A DNA stretch of 64,000 bases from Haloprofundus salinisoli (GTDB lineage: Archaea; Halobacteriota; Halobacteria; Halobacteriales; Haloferacaceae), in assembly GCF_020097815.1 (NCBI RefSeq), contig NZ_CP083663.1:2914001-2978000 (forward strand), given 5' to 3'. The position numbers and the translations under genes were made by a program. Every line of letters starts with the position of its first letter. Positions within the stretch are counted from its first letter, which is position 1. This document shows positions 2,840 through 17,947 of the stretch, piece by piece. A model generated the notes under the pieces. The model saw nothing but the letters and a program-made list of their open reading frames with translations, was not told the DNA's origin and ran no database searches.

Positions 2840-4303
2840 TTAGCGAATCTCGCCCGTCAGGTCCCGTACGACCCACCAGGCGTCGTTTCTGAGTCGTCCG
2901 TTCACGACGAGCAACGACGCGAAGTACGTCACACCGCCGACGCCGAGCAACAGACAGAGCGTGAGAGCGCCGGAGACGCCGTCGAGAACCGCGTACAGCG
3001 TCGCGACGACGGCCATCATGACGACGGTCGCCGCCAGTTGCGTTCCCACGTCCTTCGCGACGGCTCGGGTCGGCCGGTAGTCGAGCGTTCGCCACAGGAG
3101 CAGACAGCTGCCGCCGAAACTGAGCGTGGTCACGAGGCCGAGTCCGATAGTGCCGCCCAGTTCGGCCAGCGGGAGGACCAAGACGGCGTAGGTCACGATG
3201 AGCACGACCGAACTGAGCGCGCTGATACGGGGGCGATTCGTCCCGAGGAAGTACGATTCGAGGACGCTCCGGTAGCCGTTCGAGAGATTCGCCAGCGCGA
3301 GCACGGCGATGAGGAGGTTGCCGACGCCGACCGCGCCCAGCGCCCCCAGCGAGACCGTCCCGGGGGCGACGCCGTAGACGACCGATAGGAGGTCGTTGCC
3401 GACGACGAGGCCGCCGCCGATGGCCGGGATGGCGAACAGGCCGGCGTACGTCACCGACTTTGCGAGCAGTTCGCGTATCCGCTCGCCGCGGTCGTTCGCC
3501 TGGAGTCGGGAGAACTCCGGGAACGAGACGTCCGACAGCGCCGACGAGAACAGCATCGCCGCCTCCGTCAGCGTGAAGGAAATCTTGTACAGCCCGGCCG
3601 CTCCCGTGCCGAACAGCTGCCCGAGAACGATGTAGTCGGCCTGTTTGAACAGCTGCGAGCCGAGCGACTGCACGTAGGTGTACTTCGAGAAGGAGAAGAA
3701 GTCGCCGACGAGTTCGCGCGAGGGGAACGCCGGGACGACCCGTGCGTAGCCGAGGTAGGCGACGAGAAACGTCGCGAACTGTCCGAGAACGAGCCCCCAC
3801 AGCAGCGCGTACACACCGTATCCGGCGAGCAACAGCGCGGTCTGGAGGCCGACGATGACGACGTACCGTCCGTTCTCGATGAAGCCCGCCAGCGCAACCT
3901 CTCCTTTCCCTTCGAGGAACGCCCCGGCCACTCGCATGAGGCTCCACGAGAGGATGCCGAGCGGAACCAACAGCGCGGCGTCGGCGTCGAGAACCCCGTT
4001 CACCAGCGGCGCGGCCGCCGCGAACGCGAGCGCAGAGAGCGCCGTTCCGACGAGGACGATGAGGATGCCGCTCGTGAAGTGTTTCGCCTGGTTCTCGCCC
4101 TCGCTCACGCGCTTCGTGAGGGCGCTGAAGAGACCGAACGTGACGACTGTCGCCGCCGCCATCTGGAAACTCGTGAAGATGGCGTAGACGCCGAGTCCCG
4201 GCGCGCCGAGCTCCCGCGTGAAGAACACCGTCCCGGCGAACCCGGCGACGGTTCCGAAGACGTTCGCCAGAAACCGCTTCGAAACCTCCGCGCCGACCGT
4301 CAT
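2840..4303 (-). CDS. Polysaccharide/oligosaccharide flippase (Wzx/AglR-like)
   Basis: This is a 487-aa polytopic membrane protein of the MATE/Wzx-like polysaccharide export superfamily. It opens with KRFLANVFGTVAGFAGTVFF, followed by alternating hydrophobic helices (about 12-14) and SKYTYVQSLGSQLFKQADY-type loops typical of O-antigen flippases. In haloarchaea such proteins (AglR) are linked to moving the dolichyl-phosphate-linked sugar across the membrane before AglB acts. Its ATG shares one base with the TAA of the phosphodiesterase-like gene upstream (TAATG), so the two are probably co-transcribed and coupled. The family is clear. Which lipid-linked sugar it moves cannot be read from sequence. 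Confidence 0.85.
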   Translation of the reverse strand: MTVGAEVSKRFLANVFGTVAGFAGTVFFTRELGAPGLGVYAIFTSFQMAAATVVTFGLFSALTKRVSEGENQAKHFTSGILIVLVGTALSALAFAAAAPLVNGVLDADAALLVPLGILSWSLMRVAGAFLEGKGEVALAGFIENGRYVVIVGLQTALLLAGYGVYALLWGLVLGQFATFLVAYLGYARVVPAFPSRELVGDFFSFSKYTYVQSLGSQLFKQADYIVLGQLFGTGAAGLYKISFTLTEAAMLFSSALSDVSFPEFSRLQANDRGERIRELLAKSVTYAGLFAIPAIGGGLVVGNDLLSVVYGVAPGTVSLGALGAVGVGNLLIAVLALANLSNGYRSVLESYFLGTNRPRISALSSVVLIVTYAVLVLPLAELGGTIGLGLVTTLSFGGSCLLLWRTLDYRPTRAVAKDVGTQLAATVVMMAVVATLYAVLDGVSGALTLCLLLGVGGVTYFASLLVVNGRLRNDAWWVVRDLTGEIR

Positions 4304-5850
4304 TATTCGAGGTAACCGAGTTCGCGGAGGCGGGATTTGACCTCGGTTTCGCGCTCGTCGTCGCCGGAGACGCCGCCCTCGTTGACCGCCCCGCCGCCGA
4401 CGAAGTCGTAGTACTCGGGGTCTCGCTCGGCGGCGTCGGTGTCGGGCGCGAACACGTCGAGCACCTCGCCGTCGGTCGACGAGGGGAGCGTCCGGCCGAG
4501 CGCGTGCAGTACCGTCGGCGCGATGTCGGTGATGGCCGCGCCCTCGACGGTCCCGGTGCGGAACGACGGGCCGCGGGCGAAGAAGATGCCGTGACGAGCG
4601 TGGCCGCTCGTCGAGACATCGAACAGCGGCGACTCCGCGTCGAACCGCGAGGAGGCGTGGACTTCGGGCGTCTCGATGACCATCGCCAGATCAGGCGTGT
4701 GCGGGCCGCCGCGGTCGAGTTCGACGAAGCGCACGTCGAGGCCGACGTCGTCGGCCGCCTCGGCGAGTTTCTCCCGGGCGTGTGCGATGATTTCCGCGCG
4801 CTCGTCGGCGTCGTCGGGGAGCGCGTACACCATCGTCGTCTTCTGACCGACATCGGCGACGGCGCGAGTTCGCCCCCAGTCGACGCGCCCGAGGCTGATG
4901 GCGTTGTCCAGGCCGAGCGCCGACCCCGTCGGGAGGTCGGCGACGTAGCTCTCGGGGACGACGTTGCGCGCGAGCGTCAGCAGGCCGACGCGACCCAGCA
5001 CGTCGCTGGCGGCGTCGCGGAGTTTCCCGAGCGCCTGTTTCTTCCCGTCGCCGCTCTCGCGGAGGCCGACGAGTCCGGCCTGCGACAGCACGTAGTTCGG
5101 CGCGAACTTCTTCGAGACGGCCTCGAAGCCGTGGTCGCTCATCACGACGACGTCCTCGTCGTCGTGGGCGTCGAGGAACTCCCCCAGACGCTCGTCGACG
5201 CGGCGGTACACCTCGAACAGCGCGTTCGACTCGTCGGGGTCGGTCGACCAGTAGTGGTGGGCCACGCGGTCGGTCGCGCGAATCAGTCCCACCGCCAGTT
5301 CGGGGTCTTCCTTCCGGATGAAATGCTCGAAGCCGTCGAAGCGCTTGTCGACGAGCGAGAGGCTCTGGTCGACGTAGCGTCGGCTCCCGGGCGTCGCGTC
5401 GTTTCGGAGTTTGTACTCGCCGACGACGGACTCCAGTTCGTCCCAGCGGTCCTCGGGGTGGCTGTAGCTCTCCTTGTACTCGGGGGCGGCGGCGACGATG
5501 GTGCCGTCGATGGCCTGCCACGGGTACGACCCGGGGATGTTGAACACGACGCAGCGCCCGCCCTGGTCGTCGACGACGTCCCACATCTTTCCGGGGATGA
5601 ACTCGTCGTGGCTGAGGTCCAGTTCGCGCGTCTCGCGGTTGAAGTGGGTGAAGCCGTAGACGTCGAGTCGCTCGGGGTTCCGGCCGGTGGCGAAGGCGGG
5701 CCACGCCGGCACCGTGATCTCCGGGATGGTGCTTTCGAGGTCGCCGTGGACGCTCTCCTCGTAGAGGCGGGCGAACGTCGGCAGATGGCCCGCGTCGACC
5801 CACGGGCGAAGCAGCGAGTGGGTCGCGCCGTCCAGACCGAGGACAATCAT
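4303..5850 (-). CDS. Alkaline-phosphatase superfamily (nucleotide pyrophosphatase/phosphodiesterase-like) enzyme 1
   Basis: A soluble 515-aa protein with AlkP-superfamily metal sites: first Asp in MIVLGLDGAT (D7), candidate nucleophile Thr45 in EITVPAWPAFATGRNP, TDRVAHH (D194, H198), SDHG (D238, H239) and a late His in GHARHGIF. The Thr nucleophile with the following TGRNP matches NPP-type phosphodiesterases rather than sulfatases. It ends in RLRELGYLE. ATG 5850 was chosen over an in-frame TTG at 5877 because a TATA-like TTTTGG lies about 27 nt upstream of 5850 (leaderless mRNA). No signal peptide or membrane helix is seen. It is coupled to the flippase gene, so a role in glycan or lipid-phosphate metabolism is inferred; the substrate is unknown. 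Confidence 0.8.
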   Translation of the reverse strand: MIVLGLDGATHSLLRPWVDAGHLPTFARLYEESVHGDLESTIPEITVPAWPAFATGRNPERLDVYGFTHFNRETRELDLSHDEFIPGKMWDVVDDQGGRCVVFNIPGSYPWQAIDGTIVAAAPEYKESYSHPEDRWDELESVVGEYKLRNDATPGSRRYVDQSLSLVDKRFDGFEHFIRKEDPELAVGLIRATDRVAHHYWSTDPDESNALFEVYRRVDERLGEFLDAHDDEDVVVMSDHGFEAVSKKFAPNYVLSQAGLVGLRESGDGKKQALGKLRDAASDVLGRVGLLTLARNVVPESYVADLPTGSALGLDNAISLGRVDWGRTRAVADVGQKTTMVYALPDDADERAEIIAHAREKLAEAADDVGLDVRFVELDRGGPHTPDLAMVIETPEVHASSRFDAESPLFDVSTSGHARHGIFFARGPSFRTGTVEGAAITDIAPTVLHALGRTLPSSTDGEVLDVFAPDTDAAERDPEYYDFVGGGAVNEGGVSGDDERETEVKSRLRELGYLE

Positions 5851-5945
5851 GCCGGAAGCGATGTCGGTTTCGACCAAAAGGCGTTCGGTCTCCGGAAGTG
5901 ACGGAGGTTCGCGCCGGTTCTCGCGGTTCCGTGCGTTTCCCGAAA

Positions 5946-7565
5946 CTACTCCAGATACCCCAAATCAGCGAGTCGACCGGCCACCTCGTCGTCGTCGGTC
6001 CGCGTCCGCCCGCCCACGTCGAACTCGGGATACGTCTTGGGCTCCGGTCCCGAAACGCACGAGAGCGCCTCGCCGTCCATCTCCACGTCCGGCGCGATAC
6101 CCAACGTCGCCAACACCGTCGGCGCGACGTCGAACAGGTGCGCCTCCGAGAGGTCGGCATCGGCGTCGACGCCCGCGCCGGAGACCGAGACGACGCCGTC
6201 GAGTTTGTGGTTCCACGGTTCGGGGTCGCCGAACTGCTCGCCGACGAGCGCCGACAGCGAGTGTTCGAAGTCCGTGGGAACGGTGACAATGTCGACGGCC
6301 TCGTCGACGTACGGTCCCTCGAACAGTTCCTCGCGGGGGGCGACGCGCTCGAACACCGGCGCGCCCTCGGGCGTCTCCGCCGCGCGCAACTCCTCTATCA
6401 GCGCCTCGCGGACGGCGTCGTACTCGTCCTCCGGAATCGTCCCGTCGGGTTCTCTCCCCTCGACGTTCAGCCGAACGCCCAGTTCCGAGGGCGAGCGGAG
6501 GTACGCCTCCGAGGCCGCGAAGTCGACGGACTCGCTGGCGGCGAAGACGACGGAGACGGGAACGTGGCGGCCGACGAACTCCGCGAGGCCGACTCGGTCG
6601 AGAATCGCCTTGCCGCGCTGGTACGTCAGCCCTGCGCGCGCCGCCGCGGCCGCGACGGTCGAGAGAATCTGCGTGCCGCTGTCGCCACTGTCTTCGTCCG
6701 AACCCGACTCGTCGGTCAGTTCGCTGTCCTTAATCTGGAACCACGAGGGGACGTCCTGGCCGCCGCGGGCAGTGACGACTCGGCCCCGTTCCTTCAGGAA
6801 CTGGTTGACGCGGAACTCGTGACCGCTGTACTCGCCCATTCCGTGGTCGCTGGCGACGACGACGATGTCGGGGTCGCAGGCGTCGAGAATCTCGGCGAGT
6901 TCCTCGTCGACGGCGTGGTAGACGTCTCTGACTTTCGCCGCGTCGCCCGGGAAATCGTGGAAGACGGCGTCGGTCTTCTGGAACTGCACGAAGCCGAACT
7001 CGGGGTCGAACCGGTCGGCGAGGTAGCAGAACGTCCGCCCGCGCAGGTGCGTCAGTTCGACGTAGTCGCGGAACTTCGCCTCGTCGCTCCGCCGCTCGTC
7101 GGTCTCCCGCTCCGCGTAGACGCGGTAGGGACCGACCTCGTCCTCGATTGCTTCGAGAATCCCGTCCGGGTGACAGCGCGGGTTCTCCGCGGCCAGATAC
7201 CCCGGGACGAGCGCGCCGTCGAACTCGCGCGGCGGGTCGGTGACCGGCGCGTTGACGACGACGCTCGTCATGCCGGCTTCGTCGGCGTACTCCCACATCG
7301 TCCGCGCCTTCACGTCCGTCGAGTTGACGATGTCCCACTCGTAGCCGTCGAAGGAGAGAAAGTCGAAGACGCCGTGTTTTCCGGGGTTCCTCCCGGTGTA
7401 CAGCGAGGGCCACGCGCTCGCGGTCCACGGCGGGATCTGCGACTCCAGCGGGGCGGTCGCGCCCTCGTCGAACACGGAGCGAAGCGTCGGCAGGTCCCCG
7501 TCGTCGAACAGCGGTCGAAGCACGGGAAGACAGGCGGCGTCGAGCCCGACCAACAGGGTTCGCAT
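5946..7565 (-). CDS. Alkaline-phosphatase superfamily (NPP-like) enzyme 2
   Basis: A soluble protein of about 539 aa, related to its neighbours at 4303-5850 and 10359-11903. It starts MRTLLVGLDAAC (metal Asp9), with candidate nucleophile Thr48 in PPWTASAWPSLYTGRNP, KTDAVFHDF, ASDHGMGEYSGHE and a C-terminal RLADLGYLE. ATG 7565 is preferred over GTG 7577, because TTTTACC at about 7588-7594 on the minus strand sits 27 nt upstream. It therefore has its own promoter and is likely transcribed alone. It lacks a secretion signal, so it should act in the cytoplasm, where dolichyl-phosphate sugars and nucleotide sugars are made. The specific reaction is unknown. Confidence 0.8.
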   Translation of the reverse strand: MRTLLVGLDAACLPVLRPLFDDGDLPTLRSVFDEGATAPLESQIPPWTASAWPSLYTGRNPGKHGVFDFLSFDGYEWDIVNSTDVKARTMWEYADEAGMTSVVVNAPVTDPPREFDGALVPGYLAAENPRCHPDGILEAIEDEVGPYRVYAERETDERRSDEAKFRDYVELTHLRGRTFCYLADRFDPEFGFVQFQKTDAVFHDFPGDAAKVRDVYHAVDEELAEILDACDPDIVVVASDHGMGEYSGHEFRVNQFLKERGRVVTARGGQDVPSWFQIKDSELTDESGSDEDSGDSGTQILSTVAAAAARAGLTYQRGKAILDRVGLAEFVGRHVPVSVVFAASESVDFAASEAYLRSPSELGVRLNVEGREPDGTIPEDEYDAVREALIEELRAAETPEGAPVFERVAPREELFEGPYVDEAVDIVTVPTDFEHSLSALVGEQFGDPEPWNHKLDGVVSVSGAGVDADADLSEAHLFDVAPTVLATLGIAPDVEMDGEALSCVSGPEPKTYPEFDVGGRTRTDDDEVAGRLADLGYLE

Positions 7566-7644
7566 GGTTTCCCGCACAGGCTTGGTCGGTAAAACGTTCC
7601 CTATCTGTTCGTTCGAGGGTTGCCCTCGACCGACTCAGAGCGGG

Positions 7645-9126
7645 CTATTCGAGGTAACCGAGCTCTCGAAGATTCCGCTCGACGCCCGCGCTGTACTCCC
7701 GTTCTCTCTCGCCGTCGACGACGAACTCCTCGCCGAGCGTTTCGACCAACTGCTCGCGCAGTGCGTCTGCGACCTCGGAGTCGTCCACCTCCGCGCCCGT
7801 CCGCACGTCGTGCAGTTGCTCACTGCCGTCCGACCGCAGTTCGAGGCGATGCGTCACCGTCCGAATCGACTTCTTGCCCCGCTCGAACGCCGCGAGCGTC
7901 TCCGTCGACACCTCCGAGACCGCCTCTCGGTCGCGTTCGTCCACGACCGCGGTCTCGGCGAACACCGCGTTGCGCTCGTCGGTCGACTCGTCTCCGTCGT
8001 CCGCGCCACCGGCGAACAGCGCCCGTCCGCTCGTCGCATCCGGCGCTGCGATGCCCGAGAGGTCGCAAACCGTGTCGAACAGGTCGACGAGCGAGACGAG
8101 GTCCGAGCGGCGTTCTCCGTCGGGGACTTCGGGACCGCTGACGAGAAGCGGGACGTGCAGCAGTTCGTCGTGCAGGAAGTAACCGTGGTACATCGTCCCG
8201 TGTTCGCCGAAACACTCGCCGTGGTCGGAGGTGAGGACGACGTGCGTCTCCTCGCGACGTCCCGTCTCGTCGAGCCAGTCGAGCAGGTCGCCGAGTTGAG
8301 CGTCGAGATACCGGACGCAGGCGCGGTACCACGCCCGGAGTACCGAGAGCTCCGCGTCCGTGAGATAGTCGCCGGTCTCGTACTGCCGCATCGCAACGCT
8401 CGTCGCCGACGCGCCGTCGGCCGCCGCGAACAGCTGTTCGGGTCGCACGTCGTCGCGGTCGAACCGCACCGTAGACGGGAGAAACTCCTCCAGCAGGGGG
8501 CAGAACGGACGGTGGAGTTCGGGCGTCTCCTCGCGCATGTACGGCTTCGGCACCCAGTACGGCGCGTGGACCGTGGTGAGATTCGCCATGGCGAACCACG
8601 GCGCGTCGGCCTCGGAGACGAACCGCTGGAGCTTCTCGATCTTGATTCGAGTGTAGTAGTCGTTGCCGCGGGCGGCGAGGCGCACGAAGTCGCGGCGGAC
8701 GAACCCGTCGGTGAGCAGTTGTCGGAGGTACGGCAGCGATGGCCGCTCGGCCATCTCCTCGTACACCTCGTAGTACTCGTCGAACCCGCGGTCGAGTCCC
8801 ACCGGCGACCCCATCTTCGACGGCCCCGGTATCCCGATGGTCGCGTACCCCGCCTCGCCGAAATGTTCGGCCATCACTCTCTCATCGGCCGGCAGCGTCG
8901 GCCATGCGCCGGCGAACCCTGTCTCGGAGGGGTAGCGTCCCGTGAACAGCGCACCGTGTGAGGGCGGCGTCCACGATCCGACGGCGAAGGCGTTCTCGAA
9001 CGTCGTCCCCTCGGCGGCGAGACGGTCGAGATTCGGCGTCGGCGGCGCGTCCTCGGCGTAACAGGAGAGCGCGTCCACCCGGAGGGTATCGCAGATGACG
9101 AGGAGCACGTTGGGCGGAGAGGTCAT
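7645..9126 (-). CDS. Sulfatase-like AlkP-superfamily hydrolase without formylglycine Cys
   Basis: A soluble 493-aa protein with a sulfatase fold: NVLLVICDTLRVDAL (D13, D18) at the N-terminus, then GSWTPPSHGALFTGRYP, where the usual C-x-P-x-R becomes T-P-P-S-H, so Thr53 sits at the nucleophile position. LTSDHGECFGEHG supplies the second metal site. It ends in NLRELGYLE. Without Cys or Ser at the nucleophile position it cannot be matured to formylglycine, so arylsulfatase activity is doubtful; a phosphatase or phosphotransferase is more likely. ATG 9126 is supported by GATATTAC about 27 nt upstream. The following gene starts divergently at 9300. Confidence 0.8.
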   Translation of the reverse strand: MTSPPNVLLVICDTLRVDALSCYAEDAPPTPNLDRLAAEGTTFENAFAVGSWTPPSHGALFTGRYPSETGFAGAWPTLPADERVMAEHFGEAGYATIGIPGPSKMGSPVGLDRGFDEYYEVYEEMAERPSLPYLRQLLTDGFVRRDFVRLAARGNDYYTRIKIEKLQRFVSEADAPWFAMANLTTVHAPYWVPKPYMREETPELHRPFCPLLEEFLPSTVRFDRDDVRPEQLFAAADGASATSVAMRQYETGDYLTDAELSVLRAWYRACVRYLDAQLGDLLDWLDETGRREETHVVLTSDHGECFGEHGTMYHGYFLHDELLHVPLLVSGPEVPDGERRSDLVSLVDLFDTVCDLSGIAAPDATSGRALFAGGADDGDESTDERNAVFAETAVVDERDREAVSEVSTETLAAFERGKKSIRTVTHRLELRSDGSEQLHDVRTGAEVDDSEVADALREQLVETLGEEFVVDGEREREYSAGVERNLRELGYLE

Positions 9127-9269
9127 AGCGGCCGTTTCGAAGGAACTGTAATATCGCTTTTTGTGTCCGGTTCGTTTCCGAGCCGCTCGCGTTCCCCTTA
9201 GTTCGGACCACGCCGTTCGGCGTCGGTGTCTGAGCCGTTCGGCGTCGGCGTCGCGTCGACTCCAGCGGA

Positions 9270-9276
9270 TTTATAC
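9270..9276 (+). promoter_or_regulatory. TATA box for the glycosyltransferase at 9300
   Basis: TTTATAC lies 24-30 nt before the GTG at 9300. With no room for a ribosome binding site, this spacing indicates a leaderless transcript and fixes the unusual GTG start. Confidence 0.7.
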
Positions 9277-9299
9277 ACCTCTCGCCCGCCGCTTCTGCC

Positions 9300-10334
9300 G
9301 TGAACCGACGGACTGCGCGGGTTGCGATGCTGTACCAGGATCCTCACCCCGCCCACCGAGGCTTCGCCGAGGCCGTCGACGCCGACCTCGTCGACTTCCA
9401 GCGACATCCGCTGGGGCCGCTCTCCGACAGCGTCGTCGGCGACGTGTACAACGGCCTTCGCTACCCCTCGTACGACGTCTACCTCGTCGAGGGCTCCCGG
9501 CCGCTGTACGCGGCACTCACGCATCGGGCGGTCCGACGCTCGAAACTCGTCTACCTCTGTGCGGACCACGGCCTCTACAGCCTCGGCCGCGCCGACTTCG
9601 AGGGCAGTTCCGGCTTCAAGTCGCTCGTCGGCCGCTTCGGCAAACCGGCTATCGGCGCGGTCGGCTCTCGATTCGTCGACGGCGTCGTCGCCGTCTCCGA
9701 GTTCGCCGCCGACTTCACGCGGCCTCTCGTCGGCCCGGACACGCCCATCGAAGTCGCCCATCCCTACGTCCAACCCGAGGTGTACGACGCTCTCGGCGGC
9801 GTCTCCCCCGACATCGACGCGAACGTCGCCGTCACCGTCGGCCGGCCGTGGCGCTACAAGGGCGTCGAGATGCTGGTCGAAGCGTGGCCGACGGTCCGCG
9901 AGTCGATTCCCGACGCGGAACTGCACGTCGTCGGCGGCGGCCACCCCGAGTCGTACGCCGAGACGCCCGGCGTCGAGGTCCGCGGCTACGTCGAGAACCT
10001 GGCCGACGCGTTCGCGCCCGCCTCGCTCTACGTCCAGCCCTCGCGGATGGACACGTTCCCCGTCAGCGTGCTCGAAGCGATGCGCGCCGGACTGCCGCCG
10101 CTGGTCACCGAGACCACGGGGACGCGTTCGGAGGCCCGCACGCTCTCGCCGGACCTCGTCGTCGACGCGTCGCCCGATGCGCTCGCGGCGGGCGTCGTCG
10201 CCTACTTCGAGCAGGGTGAAGCCGAACGTCGTGAACTGTCCGCGCGCGCCCGCGAGCGCGGCGCGACGTTCGACGCTGACACTCGCAAGAACGCGTTCGC
10301 TGAGGCGTTCGACGCCGTACTCGAAGCACTTTAA
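9300..10334 (+). CDS. Glycosyltransferase family 4 (GT-B fold)
   Basis: A 344-aa GT-B glycosyltransferase. The C-terminal nucleotide-sugar domain has VTVGRPWRYKGVEMLVEAWP and SRMDTFPVSVLEAMRAGLPP, the ExxxxE-type donor-binding region of GT4 enzymes. The N-terminal acceptor domain begins VAMLYQDPHPAHRGF. It starts with GTG, supported by the TATA box at 9270-9276. No membrane segment is seen. It sits between phosphatase-like genes inside the agl locus, so it should add one sugar to the dolichyl-linked S-layer glycan; the sugar cannot be told from sequence. A gap of 24 bases to the next gene suggests a two-gene transcript. Confidence 0.8.
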   Translation: MNRRTARVAMLYQDPHPAHRGFAEAVDADLVDFQRHPLGPLSDSVVGDVYNGLRYPSYDVYLVEGSRPLYAALTHRAVRRSKLVYLCADHGLYSLGRADFEGSSGFKSLVGRFGKPAIGAVGSRFVDGVVAVSEFAADFTRPLVGPDTPIEVAHPYVQPEVYDALGGVSPDIDANVAVTVGRPWRYKGVEMLVEAWPTVRESIPDAELHVVGGGHPESYAETPGVEVRGYVENLADAFAPASLYVQPSRMDTFPVSVLEAMRAGLPPLVTETTGTRSEARTLSPDLVVDASPDALAAGVVAYFEQGEAERRELSARARERGATFDADTRKNAFAEAFDAVLEAL

Positions 10335-10358
10335 CGCGGGTGCGCCGATAGCCCGGAC

Positions 10359-11903
10359 ATGACCGTCTACGTCGTCGGACTCGACGGGGCCGACTGGTCG
10401 TTGCTCCGCGACGGCATCGACGCGGGCGACTTTCCGGGACTGGCCCGTATCGCCGACGAGGGCGTCACCGGGAATTTGGAGAGCACGCTCCCGCCCATCA
10501 CCTTCCCCGCTTGGAAATGCTACTCGACCGGGAAGACGCCCGGGAAGCTCGGGGTATACGAGTGGTTCGGCTTCGACCGCGAGTCGCAGTCGATAACGAT
10601 CAACGACTCCTCGAACTTCCGCTCGCGGGAGTACTGGGACGTGCTGGCCGACCGAGGGTTTACTCCCGCGGTCGTCAACATGCCGACGACGCACCCGCCG
10701 AACACCGACGACGGCGTGCTGACCGTCGCCGGGAGCCCCGCCTCCGAACGCGGCGAGTTCACGAAACCGAACTCGCTCAAGGCCGAACTCCTCGACGCAG
10801 TACCGAACTACCGGACGAAACCGGACCTCGTTCTCGACGAGGCGTCGCCCGACGAACTCACCTCGGAGGCGAAGACGCTCGCCGACCAGCGCTTCGACGC
10901 CGCCGAGTGGTTCGCCGACGAGAAGGGCTGTGACCTCGTCCACCTCACCGTCTTCGTCACCGACACGGTCCAGCACCGGCTCTGGGACCAACCAGAGAAG
11001 ATTCGAGAGCTGTACGAACGAATCGACCGCCGAATCGCGGCGTTGCTCGACCGCGAGGACACTGAGGCGGTGTTTCTGATGAGCGACCACGGCTTCACCG
11101 AGATCGAGGAGACGTTCCTCGTCAACCAGTGGCTCGCCGACCGCGGCGACCTCGCCGTCGGTGACGCGGGCGGGCGCGACACGCTCGCCTCCGTCGGCAT
11201 CACGCGCGAACGTCTCAAGCGCGTCGTCGACCGACTCGGCCTCGTCAACCTCGCGCAGGGGCTGATTCCGGAGTCGCTGCAGCGCTTTTTCCCCAGCGAG
11301 AGCGGCCGCGTCGCCATCCAAGACGCGCCGATAAACTGGTCGGAGACGAAGGCCATCTCGCTCGGTCGCGGTCCCATCTACCTCAACGGCGACGCCTTCG
11401 AGAGCGAGGCCGAGCGTCGGTCGTATCGCAAGTCACTCACCGAGGCGCTCTCGTCGCTGGAGACGCCCGACGGCGACCCCGTCGCGGCGGCGGTTCACCG
11501 ACCGGAGGAGATCTACACGGGCGACCTGCACCGCGCCCCCGACCTCGTCGTCGAGTACGCGACGGGCGTCGACGCGCCCGAAGCCATCGGCGGCCGTGTG
11601 TTCGGCGAGCGGACCGAGTGGCTGGCGACGCACCGCCGTCAGGGTATCTTCGGCGCGTGGGGCGAGGGGTTCAGTTCCGGCCGGTTCGACTGCACGCTCT
11701 ACGACCTCGCACCGACTATCCTCCACTGGTTCGGCGCGCCCGTCCCCCAAGATATCGACGGCGACGTCCAGCGGGCCATCCTCATCGGCGAACCCCAGCA
11801 GCGAAGCGTCGAGCAGGGGCCGGAGACGGCGACGTCAGGCGGCGGCGAGACGGCGGGCGACGAAGTCCAGGAGACGCTGCGGGATCTGGGATACATGGAA
11901 TGA
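10359..11903 (+). CDS. Alkaline-phosphatase superfamily (NPP-like) enzyme 3
   Basis: A soluble 514-aa protein and the third NPP-like paralogue of the locus: MTVYVVGLDGADWS (metal Asp9), Thr48 in PPITFPAWKCYSTGKTPGK, VTDTVQHRLW, LMSDHGF and ATHRRQGIFGAWG for the late His. It ends in TLRDLGYME. It lies 24 bases after the glycosyltransferase stop on the same strand and is probably co-transcribed with it, the clearest pairing here of a glycosyltransferase with one of these phosphatase-like enzymes. The AlkP superfamily includes phosphodiesterases and phosphotransferases; which reaction applies is unknown. Confidence 0.8.
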   Translation: MTVYVVGLDGADWSLLRDGIDAGDFPGLARIADEGVTGNLESTLPPITFPAWKCYSTGKTPGKLGVYEWFGFDRESQSITINDSSNFRSREYWDVLADRGFTPAVVNMPTTHPPNTDDGVLTVAGSPASERGEFTKPNSLKAELLDAVPNYRTKPDLVLDEASPDELTSEAKTLADQRFDAAEWFADEKGCDLVHLTVFVTDTVQHRLWDQPEKIRELYERIDRRIAALLDREDTEAVFLMSDHGFTEIEETFLVNQWLADRGDLAVGDAGGRDTLASVGITRERLKRVVDRLGLVNLAQGLIPESLQRFFPSESGRVAIQDAPINWSETKAISLGRGPIYLNGDAFESEAERRSYRKSLTEALSSLETPDGDPVAAAVHRPEEIYTGDLHRAPDLVVEYATGVDAPEAIGGRVFGERTEWLATHRRQGIFGAWGEGFSSGRFDCTLYDLAPTILHWFGAPVPQDIDGDVQRAILIGEPQQRSVEQGPETATSGGGETAGDEVQETLRDLGYME

Positions 11904-12012
11904 GTGTCGGCAGTCGAGCGCACAGACTGCGTTGGGCCGCGTAGACCCGCGACGACTCACCAGATTCGGAAAAACTCACAAAATACAAACGAGACGCCGA
12001 CGACGGTGGCGT

Positions 12013-13371
12013 ATGTCCGACCGCCCGAACACCCTCCTCGTCTCGTGGGACAGCGTTCGCGCCGACCACCTCTCAGCCCACGGGTACGAGCGTGAGACCG
12101 CCCCGTTTCTGACGAGCGTCGCCGAGGACGGTCTCGTCTTCGAAGATGCCCAGGTGCCGGGCGTCGGCACCATCACGAGTTTCACCGGCGCGTTCACCGG
12201 CGCGCACGCCGACGCGACCCAGCAGTCCATAGAACCCGCAGACTGGAAAGCGGCCAACGCCGACCGCCGCCTGCTCTCTGAGGCGCTCTCGGACGCCGGC
12301 TACTACACCGGCGCGGTCCACTCGAACGCGCTCATGAGTCGATTCTACGGTTGGGACCGCGGGTGGGACGTGTACAAGGACAACGTCGTCACCGAATCCG
12401 ACGGAGACTCCGATTCAGCGAGATGGTGGAACCGGGTGAAAAAGGAACGACTGCTGCCGACACTGCGCCGCCTCGGCGTCGCCGGTGCGGTCATCCACGG
12501 TCGTAACATCGCGCTGAAGACGCCGTCGTACGTCGAGTGGGAGCGGATGTGGGACGACGTCGAGCAGTTCGTCCGCAACGCACCCGAACCGTGGTTCCTG
12601 TGGGTCCTGCTCGTCGACACGCACCACCCCTGGTGCGCGCCGCCCGAGTACTGCGAGTGGGAGCAACCGGGCTTCCGCGGCGCGCACGCGTGGAACTACG
12701 TCATGCGGCGGTACCCCGAGCGCACCGGCGACCGCCGCCCCGCTATCGTCAACGCCTACGACAACGAGATACGCCACGCCGACGCGTTCCTCCGGAAGTT
12801 GGACGGTCTCCTCGAGGAGACGGGCAACGACGACGCGGCGCTCGTCGTCCACAGCGACCACGGCGACGAACTCGGCGAACACGGCGAGTACGGTCACTCT
12901 TCCCAGCGGATGTACGACACACTCACCCGCGTCCCGCTGGTGATGCGGAACGTCGGCGAGACGGGTCGCGTCAAGGGGCCGCACACGCTGTTGGACCTCG
13001 GGAGTACGATTCTGAAAATCGCCGGGAGCGACGAACGTCTGAGTGATCGACCCTCGCTGCTCGGCGACGAGCGAGAGACGCGAGAATCGGTCGTCGTCGA
13101 GAACTTAGCCGGCGAAGGCGACGCCCGCGCGGCGGCCGTCGGCGACGAGTGGAAGGTGCTCTATCATCCTGACACCGGCTGGCACGCCTACTTCCGGCCC
13201 GACGACCCCTTAGAGCGAAACGACCGCTGGGGCGACCACCCCGAGGAACTCGAAGCGGTGCTGAGAGCGCACCTCCGCGACCGAGAGGGCGTCACCGTCT
13301 CCGTCGAGAAAGGCGGCGACGGGATGAGCGACGTGCAGGAACGACTCACGAACCTCGGCTACATCGACTGA
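12013..13371 (+). CDS. Sulfatase-like AlkP-superfamily protein, atypical nucleophile region
   Basis: A soluble 452-aa protein. NTLLVSWDSVRADHLSAHGY (D13, D18) and VVHSDHGDELGEHGEYGHSS give the sulfatase-type metal sites. The nucleophile loop reads PGVGTITSFTGAFTGAH, with Thr53 or Thr55 and no Cys or Arg. The middle region is Trp-rich (WFLWVLLVDTHHPWCAP). It ends in RLTNLGYID. The start is ATG 12013, with an A/T-rich AAATACAAA about 28 nt upstream. It converges with the gene ending at 13408, leaving only 36 bases between the stops. A role in modifying or cleaving phosphorylated or sulfated glycan is inferred from the neighbourhood; the missing FGly motif argues against a classical sulfatase. 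Confidence 0.75.
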   Translation: MSDRPNTLLVSWDSVRADHLSAHGYERETAPFLTSVAEDGLVFEDAQVPGVGTITSFTGAFTGAHADATQQSIEPADWKAANADRRLLSEALSDAGYYTGAVHSNALMSRFYGWDRGWDVYKDNVVTESDGDSDSARWWNRVKKERLLPTLRRLGVAGAVIHGRNIALKTPSYVEWERMWDDVEQFVRNAPEPWFLWVLLVDTHHPWCAPPEYCEWEQPGFRGAHAWNYVMRRYPERTGDRRPAIVNAYDNEIRHADAFLRKLDGLLEETGNDDAALVVHSDHGDELGEHGEYGHSSQRMYDTLTRVPLVMRNVGETGRVKGPHTLLDLGSTILKIAGSDERLSDRPSLLGDERETRESVVVENLAGEGDARAAAVGDEWKVLYHPDTGWHAYFRPDDPLERNDRWGDHPEELEAVLRAHLRDREGVTVSVEKGGDGMSDVQERLTNLGYID

Positions 13372-13407
13372 CGACCGCTGATCCGGAGAATAGAATCGCC
13401 GCGACGC

Positions 13408-14325
13408 TCAGAGATAGCCGAGCGCGCCCAGTTTCTCTTCGATATCGCCGCGCTCGACGTTTCGCTCGGTCGTCGGTTCGTGCGTCCCCTCGTCCTCGGC
13501 GGTCGTCTCGTACCACGGCACCCGCCGAACCGACGGCAGCGGCACCTTCGGGTGGCCGTAGACGCCCCACTCGCCCTTCGCGTTGCCGTGGTCGGCGCTG
13601 ATAACGACCCGCTCGGCGTCGAGATTTTCGAGGAGAAGGGCGACCTCGTCCAGCACGTAGCGGAGGTTCGACCGGTAGCTCTCCCAGACTCGCGCTTCGG
13701 TGAGTTCGCCGCGTCGCAGTCGGTCCCACGGCGAGTCCCACCCGGCACCTTCGCCGAGCGTCTCGCTGTTCATCCCGCCGCCGAGGGGGTCGGGAACCGA
13801 GGGGAAGTGCGGCTGCATGTAGTGGACGACGAGGCGGTCGGCGTCGGTCTCGCGACCCGCCGCGATGGCGCGGTCGGTGATGGGTCGGGCGGGAATCGTC
13901 CCTTCGTCGTCGTCCCACGCGTAGCGCCACACGTCGTCGAGTCGAACGAGGTCATTTTCGGACAGTATTCGGTGGCTGAACGGGTTACCGGTGACGTACG
14001 CCGTCCGGCGCATCTCGTCGCGATGGTCGTCGGTGAACGTCCGCTCCATCCAGTCGATAGAGGAACTGCCGACGGAGACCAGTTCGTCAGGATGGTTCAA
14101 GAACGGATACTCGCCGGCGACTTCGCGCATCAGATCGACACGACAGGCGTCGAGGAGAATCAGCGCGTCCCACTCGCGGTCGTAGACGTTCGTGCCCGTC
14201 GGGTAGAACTCGTTGACGCGGCGCAAGCCCCCGAGATACAGTTCGTAGCCGCTCTCGCGGAGGCCCGCGACGCCGTCGTCCCGGATTCGATTCTCCGTGT
14301 CGGAGAGCCAGTCAGCGAACGTCAT
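13408..14325 (-). CDS. Divergent sulfatase-like protein, end of a four-gene glycan operon
   Basis: A short (305 aa) AlkP-superfamily member. ALILLDACRVD (D59, D64) mirrors the CDTLRVD block of true sulfatases, and VVISADHGNAKGEWGVYGHP supplies the second metal site. Between them the nucleophile region is reduced to SVGSSSIDWMERTF with candidate Ser87-89. It ends in KLGALGYL. Its ATG overlaps the upstream TGA (ATGA, 14322-14325), so translation is coupled. The family is often left as hypothetical in glycan loci. The fold assignment rests on the DACRxD and ADHG blocks and is fairly safe; the activity is unknown. Confidence 0.7.
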   Translation of the reverse strand: MTFADWLSDTENRIRDDGVAGLRESGYELYLGGLRRVNEFYPTGTNVYDREWDALILLDACRVDLMREVAGEYPFLNHPDELVSVGSSSIDWMERTFTDDHRDEMRRTAYVTGNPFSHRILSENDLVRLDDVWRYAWDDDEGTIPARPITDRAIAAGRETDADRLVVHYMQPHFPSVPDPLGGGMNSETLGEGAGWDSPWDRLRRGELTEARVWESYRSNLRYVLDEVALLLENLDAERVVISADHGNAKGEWGVYGHPKVPLPSVRRVPWYETTAEDEGTHEPTTERNVERGDIEEKLGALGYL

Positions 14326-15716
14326 TCCACGTACCCCAAGTCCCGCAGGTGTTTCTCGACCATCTCGTCGTCCTCGTCGACGGCGACGTCGCCCGCGCGG
14401 AACCGGCTCATCTTCTCTCGATGCTCGTCTAACGCCGCGCTCAGCGCCTCGTACTCCCCGGGATTCGACTCTCTGCGGTCGTCCTCGGGTTGTTCGTCGG
14501 GCGTCTCGCGGACGTTGAAGAAGAACTCGCCGTCGTCGGCGTGACGGAGCAGTTTCCAGCCGTCGGCGCGTCGGGCGTAACAGCGCCCGTAGTCGACCTG
14601 CCGGCCGACGTCGCCGAAGGCGTACTCGCGGGCGCCGATTTCGCCGCGGGCGAGTTCGAGCGCCGACTCGCCCTGCCACGTCGACGGCGCGTCGACGCCG
14701 ACCGCGTCCGCGAGCGTCGGCGCGGTGTCGAGCAGGCGTATCTGACCGTCGACGGTTTCTCGGCCCGTTTCGTCGCCACCGACGCCGTCGAGGACGAACG
14801 GCACGCGGACGACGCCCTCCCAGAACTCCGGCGGGTGGCCCGCGTGGTCGTGCTCGCCGACGAGTTCGCCGTGGTCGGCGGTGAGGCAGACGACGGTCTC
14901 CTCGCGCGTCCCTCGCTCCTCAAGTGCCTCGACGAGCGCCTCGAACTGGTCGTCGGTGTAGGCGCACTCGGCGTCGTAGAGGCGGCGAATCGTCTCCCAC
15001 TCGGCGTCGGTCATCTCCTCGGGGTGGTGGGTTCCCTTCCGCGAGAGTCGGCGGCAGTCGGCGACGCTCAGCGGCGCGTCGATGAACTGCCGTTGGTACT
15101 CGTCGGGCGCTTCGTAGGGGTGGTGGACGTCCATGTAGTGGAGCCACGCGAACCACGGTTGGTCGTCAGACACGGTGTCGACCCAGTCGAGAAAGCGCCG
15201 ATTCAGCGACTCGGCGCGCTCGTACTCGCTGGCGTCGCCGCCGGAGGCCGTCGCCATCGCGGCGTCGACGCGGTTGTAGACGCGTTCGATGGTCCGAAAG
15301 AGGGGACCGTCTTTGTCGAGGTTCGACTGGACGAACTGCTTGAGTTTGCCCGCTTCGGCGGAGCCGCTGGCGTCGTGCATCAGGTCGAAGCCGCGGTCGT
15401 AGTGGTAACTGCCGCTGGCGAAGTGGTTGTCCGTGAAGCCCGCCGTCGCGTAGCCGGCCTCGCGGAGTCGTTCGGCGAGCGTGACGACGCCGTCACCTCG
15501 CTCTCCCCGTCCCGCTTCGGGGATGCCGAGGCCTTCGATGCTCGCAAAGTGGCGGCTAGCGTGAATCGCCGGGAACGACGCGGGCGTCGACGGTCCGTTG
15601 GCGACGCAGTCCGTGAACTCTAACGCGGCGTCGGCGAACGACCGGGCGAAGGGCATCACCCGGTCGTCCACCCGGTCGGCCCGCAGCGAGTCGACGGTGA
15701 CGAGGAGGACGTTCAT
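14322..15716 (-). CDS. Sulfatase-like AlkP-superfamily enzyme
   Basis: A soluble 464-aa protein: MNVLLVTVDSLRADRV (D9), GPSTPASFPAIHASR, where Thr44 replaces the formylglycine Cys, then LTADHGELVGEHDHAGHP, and a C-terminal HLRDLGYVE. It contains WFAWLHYMDVHHPYEAP, the region that in sulfatases contacts substrate. ATG 15716 was chosen because it begins directly at the conserved block and overlaps the upstream stop as ATGA; the downstream gene overlaps it the same way. It is the third gene of an operon with GT2, GT4 and the short sulfatase-like protein. It may be a phosphatase or phosphodiesterase acting on the glycan. Confidence 0.8.
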   Translation of the reverse strand: MNVLLVTVDSLRADRVDDRVMPFARSFADAALEFTDCVANGPSTPASFPAIHASRHFASIEGLGIPEAGRGERGDGVVTLAERLREAGYATAGFTDNHFASGSYHYDRGFDLMHDASGSAEAGKLKQFVQSNLDKDGPLFRTIERVYNRVDAAMATASGGDASEYERAESLNRRFLDWVDTVSDDQPWFAWLHYMDVHHPYEAPDEYQRQFIDAPLSVADCRRLSRKGTHHPEEMTDAEWETIRRLYDAECAYTDDQFEALVEALEERGTREETVVCLTADHGELVGEHDHAGHPPEFWEGVVRVPFVLDGVGGDETGRETVDGQIRLLDTAPTLADAVGVDAPSTWQGESALELARGEIGAREYAFGDVGRQVDYGRCYARRADGWKLLRHADDGEFFFNVRETPDEQPEDDRRESNPGEYEALSAALDEHREKMSRFRAGDVAVDEDDEMVEKHLRDLGYVE

Positions 15717-16789
15717 GGCCGACCCTCCGTGTCGGAGGATAAAAGCGCACGGTACTTCGATTCGAGCGCGTCGACCACCTCGGTCCACGTCGGCAGCGGC
15801 GTCGCGGGCGCGTCGCGCTCGACCACCCGCCGGACGGCGTCGGCCACCGTCTCGGGGTCGACGCGCGAGATACCCTCGCAGTCCGCTCTGTCGGCCCAGT
15901 CGACGAGCGCGCCCGCCTCCCTGACGAGCGCCGGCGTCCCGGCGGCGAGCGACTCGGCGACGGTCATCCCGTACGCCTCGTGCGTCGACAGCGCGAGGTG
16001 CGCCGCCGCGCCCGCGTACAGAGCGGGCAACTCTTCGTCGGCAACGTAACCCAGAAACTGGACGCGGTCGTCGCCGCCGATGTCGCGCGCGAGCGCCTCC
16101 AACTCGGCGCGGTACGGGCCGCTTCCGGCGACGAGGAGGTCGTACCCCGGCAGCGAGGCGAGCGCGCGAATCGCGTGCTGGACGCCCTTGTACTCGACGA
16201 GCCGACCGACCGTGAGCAGGTACGGCCGCGAGCGCTCGAGCGGCGTCGCGTGCTCGAATCGGCCGACGTCGAGGCCGTTCGGAACCACCGTCGCGTCGAC
16301 GCCGAAATCCCGCTTCAACTGTGCTCGCTCCCACTCGCTGACCGCTACGATGGCGTCGGCGCGACGGAGCGCCCATCCCCCGATGGGGCGGTAGAGTCCG
16401 AGCAGTCGGTCGCGGAGGCTGTCGGCGCTGGAGCCGTGGTAGTGGGGCGTGGCGACGAACGCCCGCGATCCGACGCGGAGGGCGGCCAGCGCGAGCGGGA
16501 ACGAGTGGTAGTTGTGCGCGTGGACGACGTCGACATCCGCGTCGGCGTCGGCGACGACCTGCGCGACGCCCGGCGCGAAGTGGAACGCCCCGCCGGGGGC
16601 GACGCCTCGGCAGCGGCGGATTCGCACACCGTTTCGTCGTTCGCGCCGTGACACGCCGGACCCGGCGTCGGCCGTGACGACGGTGACGTCGTGGCCGCGG
16701 GCGACGAGTTCCTCGCTGACCCGCTGGACGTGCGTCTCGACGCCGCCTGTGCGGGGCGGATAGCGGTGGGTGACCTGCAGAACGTGCAT
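15713..16789 (-). CDS. Glycosyltransferase family 4
   Basis: A 358-aa GT-B enzyme. The N-terminus HVLQVTHRYPPRTGGVETHV has the glycine-rich acceptor loop typical of GT4 enzymes. VVPNGLDVGRFE, LLTVGRLVEYKGVQHAIRA and STHEAYGMTVAESLAAGTP (E-x7-E region) form the donor site. No membrane segment is seen. It starts 15 bases after the GT2 stop and its own stop overlaps the next start by four bases, so it is the second gene of the operon running from 17947 to 13408. It probably adds a sugar to the growing dolichyl-linked glycan on the cytoplasmic face. Confidence 0.85.
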   Translation of the reverse strand: MHVLQVTHRYPPRTGGVETHVQRVSEELVARGHDVTVVTADAGSGVSRRERRNGVRIRRCRGVAPGGAFHFAPGVAQVVADADADVDVVHAHNYHSFPLALAALRVGSRAFVATPHYHGSSADSLRDRLLGLYRPIGGWALRRADAIVAVSEWERAQLKRDFGVDATVVPNGLDVGRFEHATPLERSRPYLLTVGRLVEYKGVQHAIRALASLPGYDLLVAGSGPYRAELEALARDIGGDDRVQFLGYVADEELPALYAGAAAHLALSTHEAYGMTVAESLAAGTPALVREAGALVDWADRADCEGISRVDPETVADAVRRVVERDAPATPLPTWTEVVDALESKYRALLSSDTEGRP

Positions 16790-16804: not shown

Positions 16805-17947
16805 TCACTCGTACGCCTCGCGGAGTTCGGCGTCGACCTCCCAGATGGGGCCGCCCTCACCCTGAAGGAGTCGGACGCTCGCCCACCACAGCGATATCTG
16901 CGTGTCGAACAGGGCGTACGCCGGCTGTACCGGGCCGAGTCGCTCCGTCGAACCCAGCGCGACGACCGTCAGAAGGAGCACCGGCACCGCGAGCGCGAGC
17001 GGGCCGCCGAACGCCGCCAGCGCGAGCGTGAAAAGGACGATTCCGGCGGCGATGGCCCACGGCGACAGCACCATGAAACACCAGTTGAACGGGAGGACGA
17101 CCCAGCCGTACAGCCCGTGGCGGAACAGCGCGTCGCGGTTGCGCGAGAGCAGGCGGATGAGGCCCATCGCGCGGCGGTCCTTCTGCTTTCGTCGTTTCCG
17201 GAACGCCGAGTGCGACGCCTCCATGTAGCGAATCGCCGGGTCGAAGACGACGCGCCCGCCGTTTTTCCGAATCTTCATCGCCAGTTCGGTGTCGTCGGCG
17301 ATGGAGTCCTCGTCGATGGGGACGATGGCGTCGCGCTCGAACGCCGAGAACGGCCCGTGGAAGATGAGCGTCGAGTCGATGTGCGACTCTACCGTTTGGA
17401 TCCGCGCCTGGATGTCGCGGTAGCCTTCCTCGACCTCGCTACCGCCGAGCACGTCGACGTTCCGACCGGTGACGCCCTGTACGTCGGGGTCGGCGAGGTT
17501 CGCCACCGCCTCGCGGAGCGCGTCGGGAGCGATTTTGGAGTCGCAGTCGGTCTTGACGACGACCTCGTTCGAGGCCGCCGCGTACGCCTCGTTGAGCGCG
17601 ATGGCCAGTCCGCGACGTTCGTCCTCGCGCAGGAGCGTCAGCGTCGGGGCGTCGCGCTCGGCGAAGAACGCCTCGACGAGGTCGGGTGTCGCGTCGTCGC
17701 TGGAGTCGACGACGACGACCTCGACCTTCTCCATCGGGTAGTCGAGCGCGAGGATATCTTCGAGTTTGTTCTCGACGATGCGCTCCTCGTTGTACGTGGG
17801 GAGGACGACGCTCACGGTCGGCTCGTTCGGGCGTTTGTCGGCGGGCGACCCCTCCGGTCGGAGGAGGCCCATCAGCAGCAGGAACAGCGCGTACGGCAGA
17901 CCGACCAGGAAGAACAGCAGGCCGGCAAGCCGGGCGAGACGCTTCAT
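16805..17947 (-). CDS. Membrane glycosyltransferase family 2
   Basis: A 380-aa protein. A membrane anchor at residues 4-28 is followed by a GT-A domain: TVSVVLPTYNEERIVENKLE, VVVVDSSDDATPD, VVKTDCDSKI (DxD-type metal site) and SIADDTELAMKIRKNGGRVV (acidic catalytic block), then two or three C-terminal membrane helices. This is the layout of processive or polyisoprenyl-linked GT2 enzymes. ATG 17947 is supported by GATTTTTGTC about 27 nt upstream on the minus strand, making it the first gene of a four-gene operon (GT2-GT4-sulfatase-like-sulfatase-like). It is divergent from aglJ across 108 bases. Confidence 0.85.
   Translation of the reverse strand: MKRLARLAGLLFFLVGLPYALFLLLMGLLRPEGSPADKRPNEPTVSVVLPTYNEERIVENKLEDILALDYPMEKVEVVVVDSSDDATPDLVEAFFAERDAPTLTLLREDERRGLAIALNEAYAAASNEVVVKTDCDSKIAPDALREAVANLADPDVQGVTGRNVDVLGGSEVEEGYRDIQARIQTVESHIDSTLIFHGPFSAFERDAIVPIDEDSIADDTELAMKIRKNGGRVVFDPAIRYMEASHSAFRKRRKQKDRRAMGLIRLLSRNRDALFRHGLYGWVVLPFNWCFMVLSPWAIAAGIVLFTLALAAFGGPLALAVPVLLLTVVALGSTERLGPVQPAYALFDTQISLWWASVRLLQGEGGPIWEVDAELREAYE

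What the first reader, a model, noticed from the sequence alone, without database searches (positions are those of the whole stretch)
5946..15716. Shared C-terminal LxxLGY tail on all seven phosphatase-superfamily proteins
The endings read RLRELGYLE, RLADLGYLE, NLRELGYLE, TLRDLGYME, RLTNLGYID, KLGALGYL and HLRDLGYVE. The NPP-like and sulfatase-like members are otherwise very different, so the tail is kept across two subfamilies. LGY-type endings are known in many sulfatases, but its constancy here suggests a common docking or assembly function.
Basis: partly seen in the sequence, partly recalled or inferred. Interest (0 to 1): 0.6.

Follow-up and report, generated by a model that had tools for sequence, protein, structure and literature searches.

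The report
Shared tail on sulfation enzymes
Seven neighbouring archaeal enzymes that decorate surface sugars end in the same short helix, and that helix also ends unrelated sulfate-handling proteins across bacteria and archaea, which suggests a tag that brings sulfation enzymes together.

Summary
In detail: all seven AlkP-superfamily proteins at 4303-15716 end in L-x-x-L-G-Y. An eighth tailed protein, a 69-aa RHH-like one, lies at 19460-19669.

The tail is not local. It ends 99 of 113 complete relatives of the NPP-like members, found across many phyla with a query lacking it. It is conserved (mean identity 0.56) behind a variable linker (0.15; core 0.34). Among haloarchaeal sulfatase-like proteins it sits on 68 with Thr/Ser at the nucleophile position and on 0 of 13 formylglycine-type (Cys) ones. 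AlphaFold does not pack it confidently on the core. Primers in a 2025 paper show it on Agl30 and Agl31, proven N-glycan sulfotransferases.

The new part: a profile built only from AlkP tails finds the same tail on APS kinases (17 of 53 examined; mostly operon neighbours of AlkP genes), on PF00685-type sulfotransferases and on DUF2061 membrane proteins. The best shuffled C-terminus scored E 0.12; APS-kinase tails reach 3e-8.

Most likely it is a portable docking helix assembling sulfate-activating and sulfate-transferring enzymes. The partner is unknown. Most haloarchaea sampled lack a clear APS kinase, so the picture there is incomplete.

The parts
4303..5850 (-). NPP-like AlkP protein (PF01663), tail RLRELGYLE
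   Evidence: Pfam E 5.7e-38
5946..7565 (-). NPP-like AlkP protein (PF01663), tail RLADLGYLE
   Evidence: E 2.8e-31
7645..9126 (-). Sulfatase-like AlkP protein (PF00884), Thr at the nucleophile position (TPPSH), tail NLRELGYLE
   Evidence: (E 4.9e-42)
9300..10334 (+). GT4-type glycosyltransferase (context; my gene caller starts it at 9327)
10359..11903 (+). NPP-like AlkP protein (PF01663), tail TLRDLGYME; modelled: core well predicted, linker and tail helix 500-509 not
   Evidence: (E 3.1e-37)
12013..13371 (+). Sulfatase-like AlkP protein (PF00884), Thr at the nucleophile position, tail RLTNLGYID
   Evidence: (E 2.1e-39)
13408..14325 (-). Short (305 aa) divergent AlkP-like protein, tail KLGALGYL
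   Evidence: (PglZ E 0.017, Sulfatase E 0.078, both under the cut-off)
14322..15716 (-). Sulfatase-like AlkP protein (PF00884), Thr at the nucleophile position (TPASF), tail HLRDLGYVE; modelled
   Evidence: (E 1.9e-35)
19460..19669 (+). 69-aa RHH-like protein ending DQLTDLGYLK: eighth tailed protein of the window
   Evidence: RHH_1 E 0.0013, below cut-off; AlkP-tail profile E 6e-5
2..2782 (-). AglB/STT3 oligosaccharyltransferase, cut by the window edge (context)
   Evidence: STT3 E 6.6e-25, AglB core E 2.7e-21
2840..4303 (-). Polysaccharide flippase (context)
   Evidence: E 2.4e-23
15713..16789 (-). GT4-type glycosyltransferase (context)
16805..17947 (-). GT2-type glycosyltransferase (context)
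18056..19012 (+). GT2-type glycosyltransferase (context)

Best explanation
The LGY ending is a portable C-terminal docking module: a short capped amphipathic helix (consensus Y-S-x-E-E-E-x-x-[IV]-x-x-R-L-x-x-L-G-Y-[LI]-[ED]) held on a variable, acidic, flexible linker. SHOWN: it is conserved across phyla, sits 1-3 residues from the C-terminus, and occurs as the same module on AlkP proteins (NPP-like and Thr/Ser sulfatase-like), on APS kinases, on PF00685-type sulfotransferases, on DUF2061 membrane proteins and on small RHH-like proteins, often in one operon. SHOWN BY OTHERS: two tailed haloarchaeal AlkP proteins (Agl30, Agl31) are N-glycan sulfotransferases. INFERRED: the helix docks in trans onto a shared partner, or onto other tails, and so holds sulfate activation, sulfate transfer and lipid-linked glycan assembly together at the cytoplasmic face of the membrane. 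In this window it would gather the seven AlkP enzymes beside AglB, flippase and glycosyltransferases, where at least the sulfatase-like ones are likely glycan sulfotransferases.
For: 99 of 113 complete relatives found with a tail-free query carry the tail. Mean pairwise identity: core 0.34, linker 0.15, tail 0.56; G and Y in 74 of 75 rows, L507 in 75 of 75. AlphaFold: core mostly above 90, linker 59 and tail helix 60-66; sulfatase-like linker 32, tail helix 61; PDB matches end at model residues 484 and about 442. A profile from 222 AlkP tails ranks APS-kinase C-termini first among 6,092 (E 3e-8 to 2e-3; best shuffled 0.12) and also finds DUF2061, sulfotransferases and RHH-like proteins. Frames ending in L..LGY number 31 against 0 for each of the five permutations of LGY, and 110 against 0 in other loci. 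Tailed APS kinases have an AlkP gene within 3 kb in 12 of 14 loci, untailed in 7 of 34, after dropping loci that overlap the AlkP loci used to choose genomes (p 4e-5). Agl30, Agl31 and VNG1063H end in HLEDLGYL, LEELGYT and KELGYIE.
Against: No partner is identified and no complex could be modelled. Only 3 of 59 haloarchaeal genomes have a strong APS-kinase match, so an APS kinase cannot be the general partner there. AlkP genes next to tailed APS kinases are mostly untailed. In haloarchaea, 14 of 16 tailed non-AlkP small proteins inspected have no AlkP gene in the fetched stretch. Agl30 and Agl31 carrying a tag right after the tail still sulfated glycans in another host, so a free C-terminus, and perhaps the tail, is dispensable for activity. 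A sulfotransferase role for the NPP-like members is not shown.
Confidence: 0.52

Rival explanations
1. Homotypic association: tails bind other tails (dimer or bundle), so that each enzyme oligomerises with itself and tailed neighbours mix. No separate receptor exists.
For: One amphipathic face (I/V, L, L, Y, L) and near-identical tails on all members suit self-association; a tailed membrane protein (DUF2061) could recruit tailed enzymes directly.
Against: Not tested. An isolated bundle of such short helices would be weak (inference).
Confidence: 0.2
2. Cis element: the helix packs onto its own catalytic domain, as a lid or stabiliser, at a site the models miss.
For: Conservation equal to catalytic residues. 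In the NPP-like family the distance from the last core glycine to the tail Leu is 32-53 residues (median 45), which a fixed cis site could tolerate.
Against: Low model confidence despite 75 aligned sequences; the same tail on unrelated folds; untailed AlkP of the same fold exist.
Confidence: 0.12
3. C-terminal signal for stability or turnover (for example recognised by a protease adaptor), shared by proteins whose level must be matched.
For: The extreme C-terminal position is kept: Tyr is 1-3 residues from the end in 132 of 134 haloarchaeal and 94 of 94 other tails; RHH-like regulators share it.
Against: Fusing a tag directly after the tail of Agl30 and Agl31 left detectable, active protein.
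Confidence: 0.08
4. Inherited ending without a shared function, spread by descent and by fusion of neighbouring gene ends.
For: Within the haloarchaeal sulfatase-like tree only 3 changes of the tail are needed, so much of its presence is descent; some tailed small proteins lie far from any AlkP gene.
Against: Tail identity exceeds core identity across phyla, which drift would not keep; presence on several unrelated families of one pathway.
Confidence: 0.06

Closest known systems
Agl30 (VNG1056C) and Agl31 (VNG1057C), N-glycan sulfotransferases of Halobacterium salinarum (PMC11980604; passages and section 7 read)
   Same: AlkP superfamily, encoded in an aglB cluster, and end in HLEDLGYL and LEELGYT (translated from the cloning primers). 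The paper's DALI hits (6HHM, 5G2U) rank 1 and 6 for the window's 14322-15716 model.
   Different: Activity of the window proteins is untested; I could not get the full Agl30/31 sequences, so orthology is not shown. The passages I read do not discuss the tail.
NPP-like 'alkaline phosphatase family' proteins (PF01663; COG3379 by recall, no call gave that label)
   Same: Window proteins align end to end, tail included, with members from many phyla at 24-32% identity in the rows listed; best PDB matches are ENPP enzymes and Xac NPP, Z about 30.
   Different: The solved NPPs match only as far as model residue 484, so the tail has no counterpart in those matches. No substrate is known to me for this group.
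Formylglycine sulfatases (S1 family)
   Same: Fold: 6HHM, Z 33.7, rmsd 4.1, 377 aligned.
   Different: Thr instead of Cys at the nucleophile position, and a tail that 0 of 13 Cys-type haloarchaeal members have.
Short C-terminal docking tags in general, such as docking peptides of multi-enzyme assemblies (recalled)
   Same: Short conserved helix on a flexible linker, shared by enzymes of one pathway.
   Different: No partner known here; spans many phyla and several unrelated folds.

Membership tests
Agl30/Agl31-type N-glycan sulfotransferase | AlkP-superfamily fold of the sulfatase kind | tested here: met
   PF00884 E 1.9e-35 for 14322-15716; model matches 6HHM Z 33.7 and 5G2U Z 32.8
Agl30/Agl31-type N-glycan sulfotransferase | encoded in an aglB-anchored glycosylation cluster | tested here: met
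   STT3/AglB at 2-2782, flippase and glycosyltransferases around
Agl30/Agl31-type N-glycan sulfotransferase | LGY C-terminus | tested here: met
   primers of PMC11980604 translated; window endings
Agl30/Agl31-type N-glycan sulfotransferase | sequence orthology to VNG1056C or VNG1057C | not tested
   a 24-base exact pattern from the Agl30 primer had 0 hits in 391 haloarchaeal genomes, so I never held the full sequences
Agl30/Agl31-type N-glycan sulfotransferase | sulfate transfer to the lipid-linked glycan | not testable with these tools
   needs mutants and mass spectrometry
Formylglycine (S1) sulfatase | Cys/Ser-x-Pro-x-Arg with a nucleophile turned into formylglycine | tested here: not met
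   Thr at that position in the three window sulfatase-like proteins (TPPSHG, TITSFT, TPASFP)
PF01663 NPP-like family | Pfam domain above cut-off and Thr nucleophile | tested here: met
   three window proteins at 109-132 bits, cut-off 23; Thr read for 10359-11903 (TFPAWK) and 5946-7565 (TASAWP)
Portable C-terminal docking module | same short sequence on unrelated folds of one pathway | tested here: met
   AlkP-only tail profile finds APS kinases, DUF2061, PF00685-type sulfotransferases and RHH-like proteins
Portable C-terminal docking module | binds a defined partner | not testable with these tools
   no complex prediction or binding data

The most novel reading that the evidence does not exclude
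A pan-prokaryotic sulfation assembly marked by one C-terminal helix: APS kinase, PF00685-type sulfotransferase, AlkP-type glycan sulfotransferases and a DUF2061 membrane anchor carry the same tag and dock on one hub. A candidate hub, only an idea, is the untailed ~450-aa AlkP protein (the 'MGLF' type) that lies beside many tailed APS kinases and has a 39-41% identical haloarchaeal counterpart in this genome. PAPS would then be made and used within one membrane-bound complex next to the glycan assembly line.
Probability: 0.3. Interest if true: 0.85.

Novelty: new variant of a known kind. Interest (0 to 1): 0.7.

Why it matters
How prokaryotes sulfate surface glycans is barely known. One recognisable tail links proven archaeal N-glycan sulfotransferases to APS kinases and PF00685-type sulfotransferases in many phyla. 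It therefore gives a sequence handle for finding sulfation gene sets, predicts that many 'alkaline phosphatase family' or 'sulfatase' annotations in glycan loci are really transferases, and makes a sulfation complex directly testable by removing ten residues.

Tried and rejected
Viral contigs: three scans gave no relatives. PDB: an AlkP-tail profile found no solved AlkP with the tail; the best hit was a chain of entry 4v91 at E 0.0042. Plasmid-borne bacterial sulfatases: none of the sulfatase-type proteins read had the terminal tail; these are mostly choline-sulfatase or catabolic types. Plasmid APS kinases: of 30 listed, 28 matches stop at or before query residue 188 of 212, and the other two, bifunctional enzymes, stop at 203 and 209, so none covers the end of the tail. 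The idea that the tail marks only glycan loci was dropped: 12 of 49 tailed haloarchaeal AlkP lack such neighbours. The idea that it is AlkP-only was dropped. The link tail/no-Cys rests on few events (3 tail changes, 1 Cys clade) and is not independent evidence. The tailed ABC ATPase L316:6484-7683 (E 0.008) may be chance. Literature: no paper held all of 'alkaline phosphatase superfamily', 'C-terminal', 'LGY', 'sulfatase', none held 3 of 'sulfatase', 'C-terminal helix', 'conserved motif', 'LGY', and none of the 10 papers listed (of 22) for APS kinase with sulfotransferase held DUF2061; I saw listings only, except PMC11980604 (passages and section 7).

Counting caveats. The haloarchaeal sample L070-L125 comes from the strongest listed hits (every fourth of the first 80 non-own PF00884 hits, then part of the rest; PF01663 hits picked by hand; a few added), not at random. 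In one search the row 'all' counts the native ending of L307 as a tail, so I use the second row. The figure of 17 tailed APS kinases is the 16 plus L323, whose tail is printed there but failed a length filter. A5 used 72 of 102 eligible non-window sequences plus three from the window. Of 79 genomes behind the loci, 50 were searched for APS kinase and DUF2061 and 40 for PF00685. One search used a looser tail pattern; its 14 misses include two frames broken by masked bases.
Full report
WHAT IS THERE. The window opens with an AglB/STT3 oligosaccharyltransferase (cut by the edge), a flippase, then seven AlkP-superfamily genes mixed with glycosyltransferases. Three are NPP-like (PF01663), three sulfatase-like (PF00884), and one is a short divergent member. 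An eighth protein with the same ending, a 69-aa RHH-like protein, lies at 19460-19669.

IS IT MORE THAN CHANCE. The strict DNA pattern for the tail plus stop has 6 hits in the whole genome against 0 for the pattern read backwards, all six at the ends of AlkP genes. In 59 haloarchaeal genomes it has 141 hits (my sum) against 1. Of the 79 hits in fetched DNA, 63 end AlkP genes. In this genome 12 of 17 AlkP genes examined have the tail: seven here and five elsewhere.

IT IS ANCIENT. It returned 79 loci from bacteria and archaea of many phyla. Of 113 complete frames, 99 carry the tail and 14 do not (9 more are cut). Window protein 10359-11903 aligns with them end to end, tail included. Over 75 sequences, mean pairwise identity is 0.34 in the core, 0.15 in the linker and 0.56 in the tail; the tail Leu is invariant and G and Y occur in 74 of 75. 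The Tyr lies 1-3 residues from the C-terminus in 132 of 134 haloarchaeal and 94 of 94 other tails. Neighbour families in these loci include glycosyltransferases (29 and 20 loci), flippases (21) and an O-antigen ligase type (9).

WHICH ALKP HAVE IT. Among 89 haloarchaeal sulfatase-like proteins, 68 have the tail, with Thr (61) or Ser (7) at the nucleophile position. The 13 with Cys, the formylglycine kind, all lack it. On a tree the tail needs only 3 changes, so this is a clade-level split, not many independent events. Of tailed AlkP in the family-drawn sample, 37 of 49 have a glycan gene within 6 kb, against 10 of 30 untailed (p 3e-4); 12 tailed ones do not.

STRUCTURE. AlphaFold predicts the NPP-like core well (mean pLDDT 87.3), but the linker falls to 59 and the tail helix (500-509) to about 60-66. 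The sulfatase-like model gives 32 for the linker and 61 for the helix, with only 10 aligned sequences. PDB matches span the core and stop at residue 484 and about 442. So a helix is predicted, but no confident place on the core. This fits a mobile tail and does not prove one.

A LINK TO KNOWN FUNCTION. PMC11980604 (passages and section 7 read) shows that the Halobacterium salinarum AlkP proteins VNG1056C and VNG1057C (Agl30, Agl31) are N-glycan sulfotransferases. Its cloning primers translate to C-termini HLEDLGYL and LEELGYT, and a primer for VNG1063H gives KELGYIE. So three of three AlkP proteins that the paper considered in that aglB cluster have the tail. The versions expressed in Haloferax had a StrepII-His tag right after the tail and still sulfated the host glycan, so a free C-terminus is not required.

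THE SAME TAIL ON OTHER SULFATE PROTEINS. In the bacterial loci, tailed proteins that are not AlkP included APS kinases (Pfam E 5.6e-63 and 7.9e-50) and a DUF2061 membrane protein. I searched 50 of those genomes for APS kinase; 39 have one. I read 53 regions, three of them haloarchaeal. Seventeen of 53 APS kinases end in the full tail, one of them in a haloarchaeon. After dropping loci that overlap the AlkP loci used to choose genomes, 12 of 14 tailed and 7 of 34 untailed APS kinases have an AlkP gene within 3 kb (p 4e-5), with gaps as small as 7 bases. In 14 of 16 cases the nearest AlkP gene is on the same strand (first-row set). DUF2061 occurs in 6 of the 50 genomes and is tailed in 3. PF00685-type sulfotransferases were searched in 40 genomes; 3 of 30 loci read are tailed, plus a second copy in L283, from three Nitrospirota-type genomes. 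RHH-like tailed proteins lie in several of the same regions. One operon-like set, L305, holds a tailed DUF2061, an untailed AlkP, a tailed APS kinase, another untailed AlkP and a tailed RHH-like protein.

CONTROLS. A profile built from 222 AlkP tails only was run on 6,092 C-termini and their shuffles. APS kinases top the list at E 3e-8; the best shuffle is 0.12. Frames ending in the tail pattern number 31 for LGY and 0 for each of the five other orders of L, G and Y, and 110 against 0 in further loci.

HOW IT MOST LIKELY WORKS. One short helix with a conserved hydrophobic face ([IV], L, L, Y, [LI]) and a conserved Arg, on a variable linker, shared by enzymes that make the sulfate donor, enzymes that transfer sulfate, and a membrane protein, is best read as a docking tag. 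I put this at 0.52. Whether it binds a hub, other tails or the membrane machinery is open. A cis role is less likely because unrelated folds share it.

WHAT DOES NOT FIT. Only 3 of 59 haloarchaeal genomes have a strong APS-kinase match, although haloarchaea are rich in tailed AlkP; this genome's own APS kinase has no tail. The AlkP genes beside tailed APS kinases are mostly untailed. In haloarchaea 14 of 16 tailed small proteins inspected, the window's own and L025 excepted, have no AlkP gene in the fetched stretch. The NPP-like members have no activity known to me.

VERDICT. None of the literature searches listed in Tried and rejected found a description of it; that library is partial.

Noticed in passing
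window:19460-19669: RHH-like 69-aa protein with the tail. Its haloarchaeal relatives in L028, L030 and L059 also sit beside a GT2 gene but mostly without AlkP neighbours.
   Followed up: partly
G000:C1:670620-671738 (L006:6579-7922): Untailed 447-aa NPP-like protein (MGLFDRLRG...); relatives of this type are among the top PF01663 hits of the haloarchaeal genomes searched. It is 39-41% identical to untailed bacterial AlkP (L308, L310) beside tailed APS kinases: candidate hub, untested.
   Followed up: partly
L027, L042, L046, L063: A small (about 73-87 aa) haloarchaeal protein family of unknown function ends in the same tail (for example RKRLQELGYID), with no AlkP nearby.
   Followed up: no
L032, L033, L043, L050-L052: A second RHH-like small family (YTTISLRKEFV...) ends in the tail, with no AlkP or glycan gene detected nearby.
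   Followed up: no
L093:4421-11909: Five untailed Thr-type sulfatase-like genes in tandem in genome G043; on the tree they are the nearest rows outside the trio of window protein 12013-13371 and apparently lost the tail.
   Followed up: no
L324 (G000:C2:340000-356276) around 7568-8476: This genome's own APS-kinase match is an untailed 302-aa frame on the second contig.
   Followed up: no
L127 (Paenibacillus cellulositrophicus plasmid): Two sulfatase genes and two sugar oxidoreductases flank a cysC gene; the one sulfatase read here in full has no tail.
   Followed up: no
window:13408-14325: 305-aa AlkP-like protein that no Pfam model reaches at its cut-off; the best are weak PglZ and Sulfatase matches. 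Relatives with the tail occur in L044, L045 and L071.
   Followed up: no
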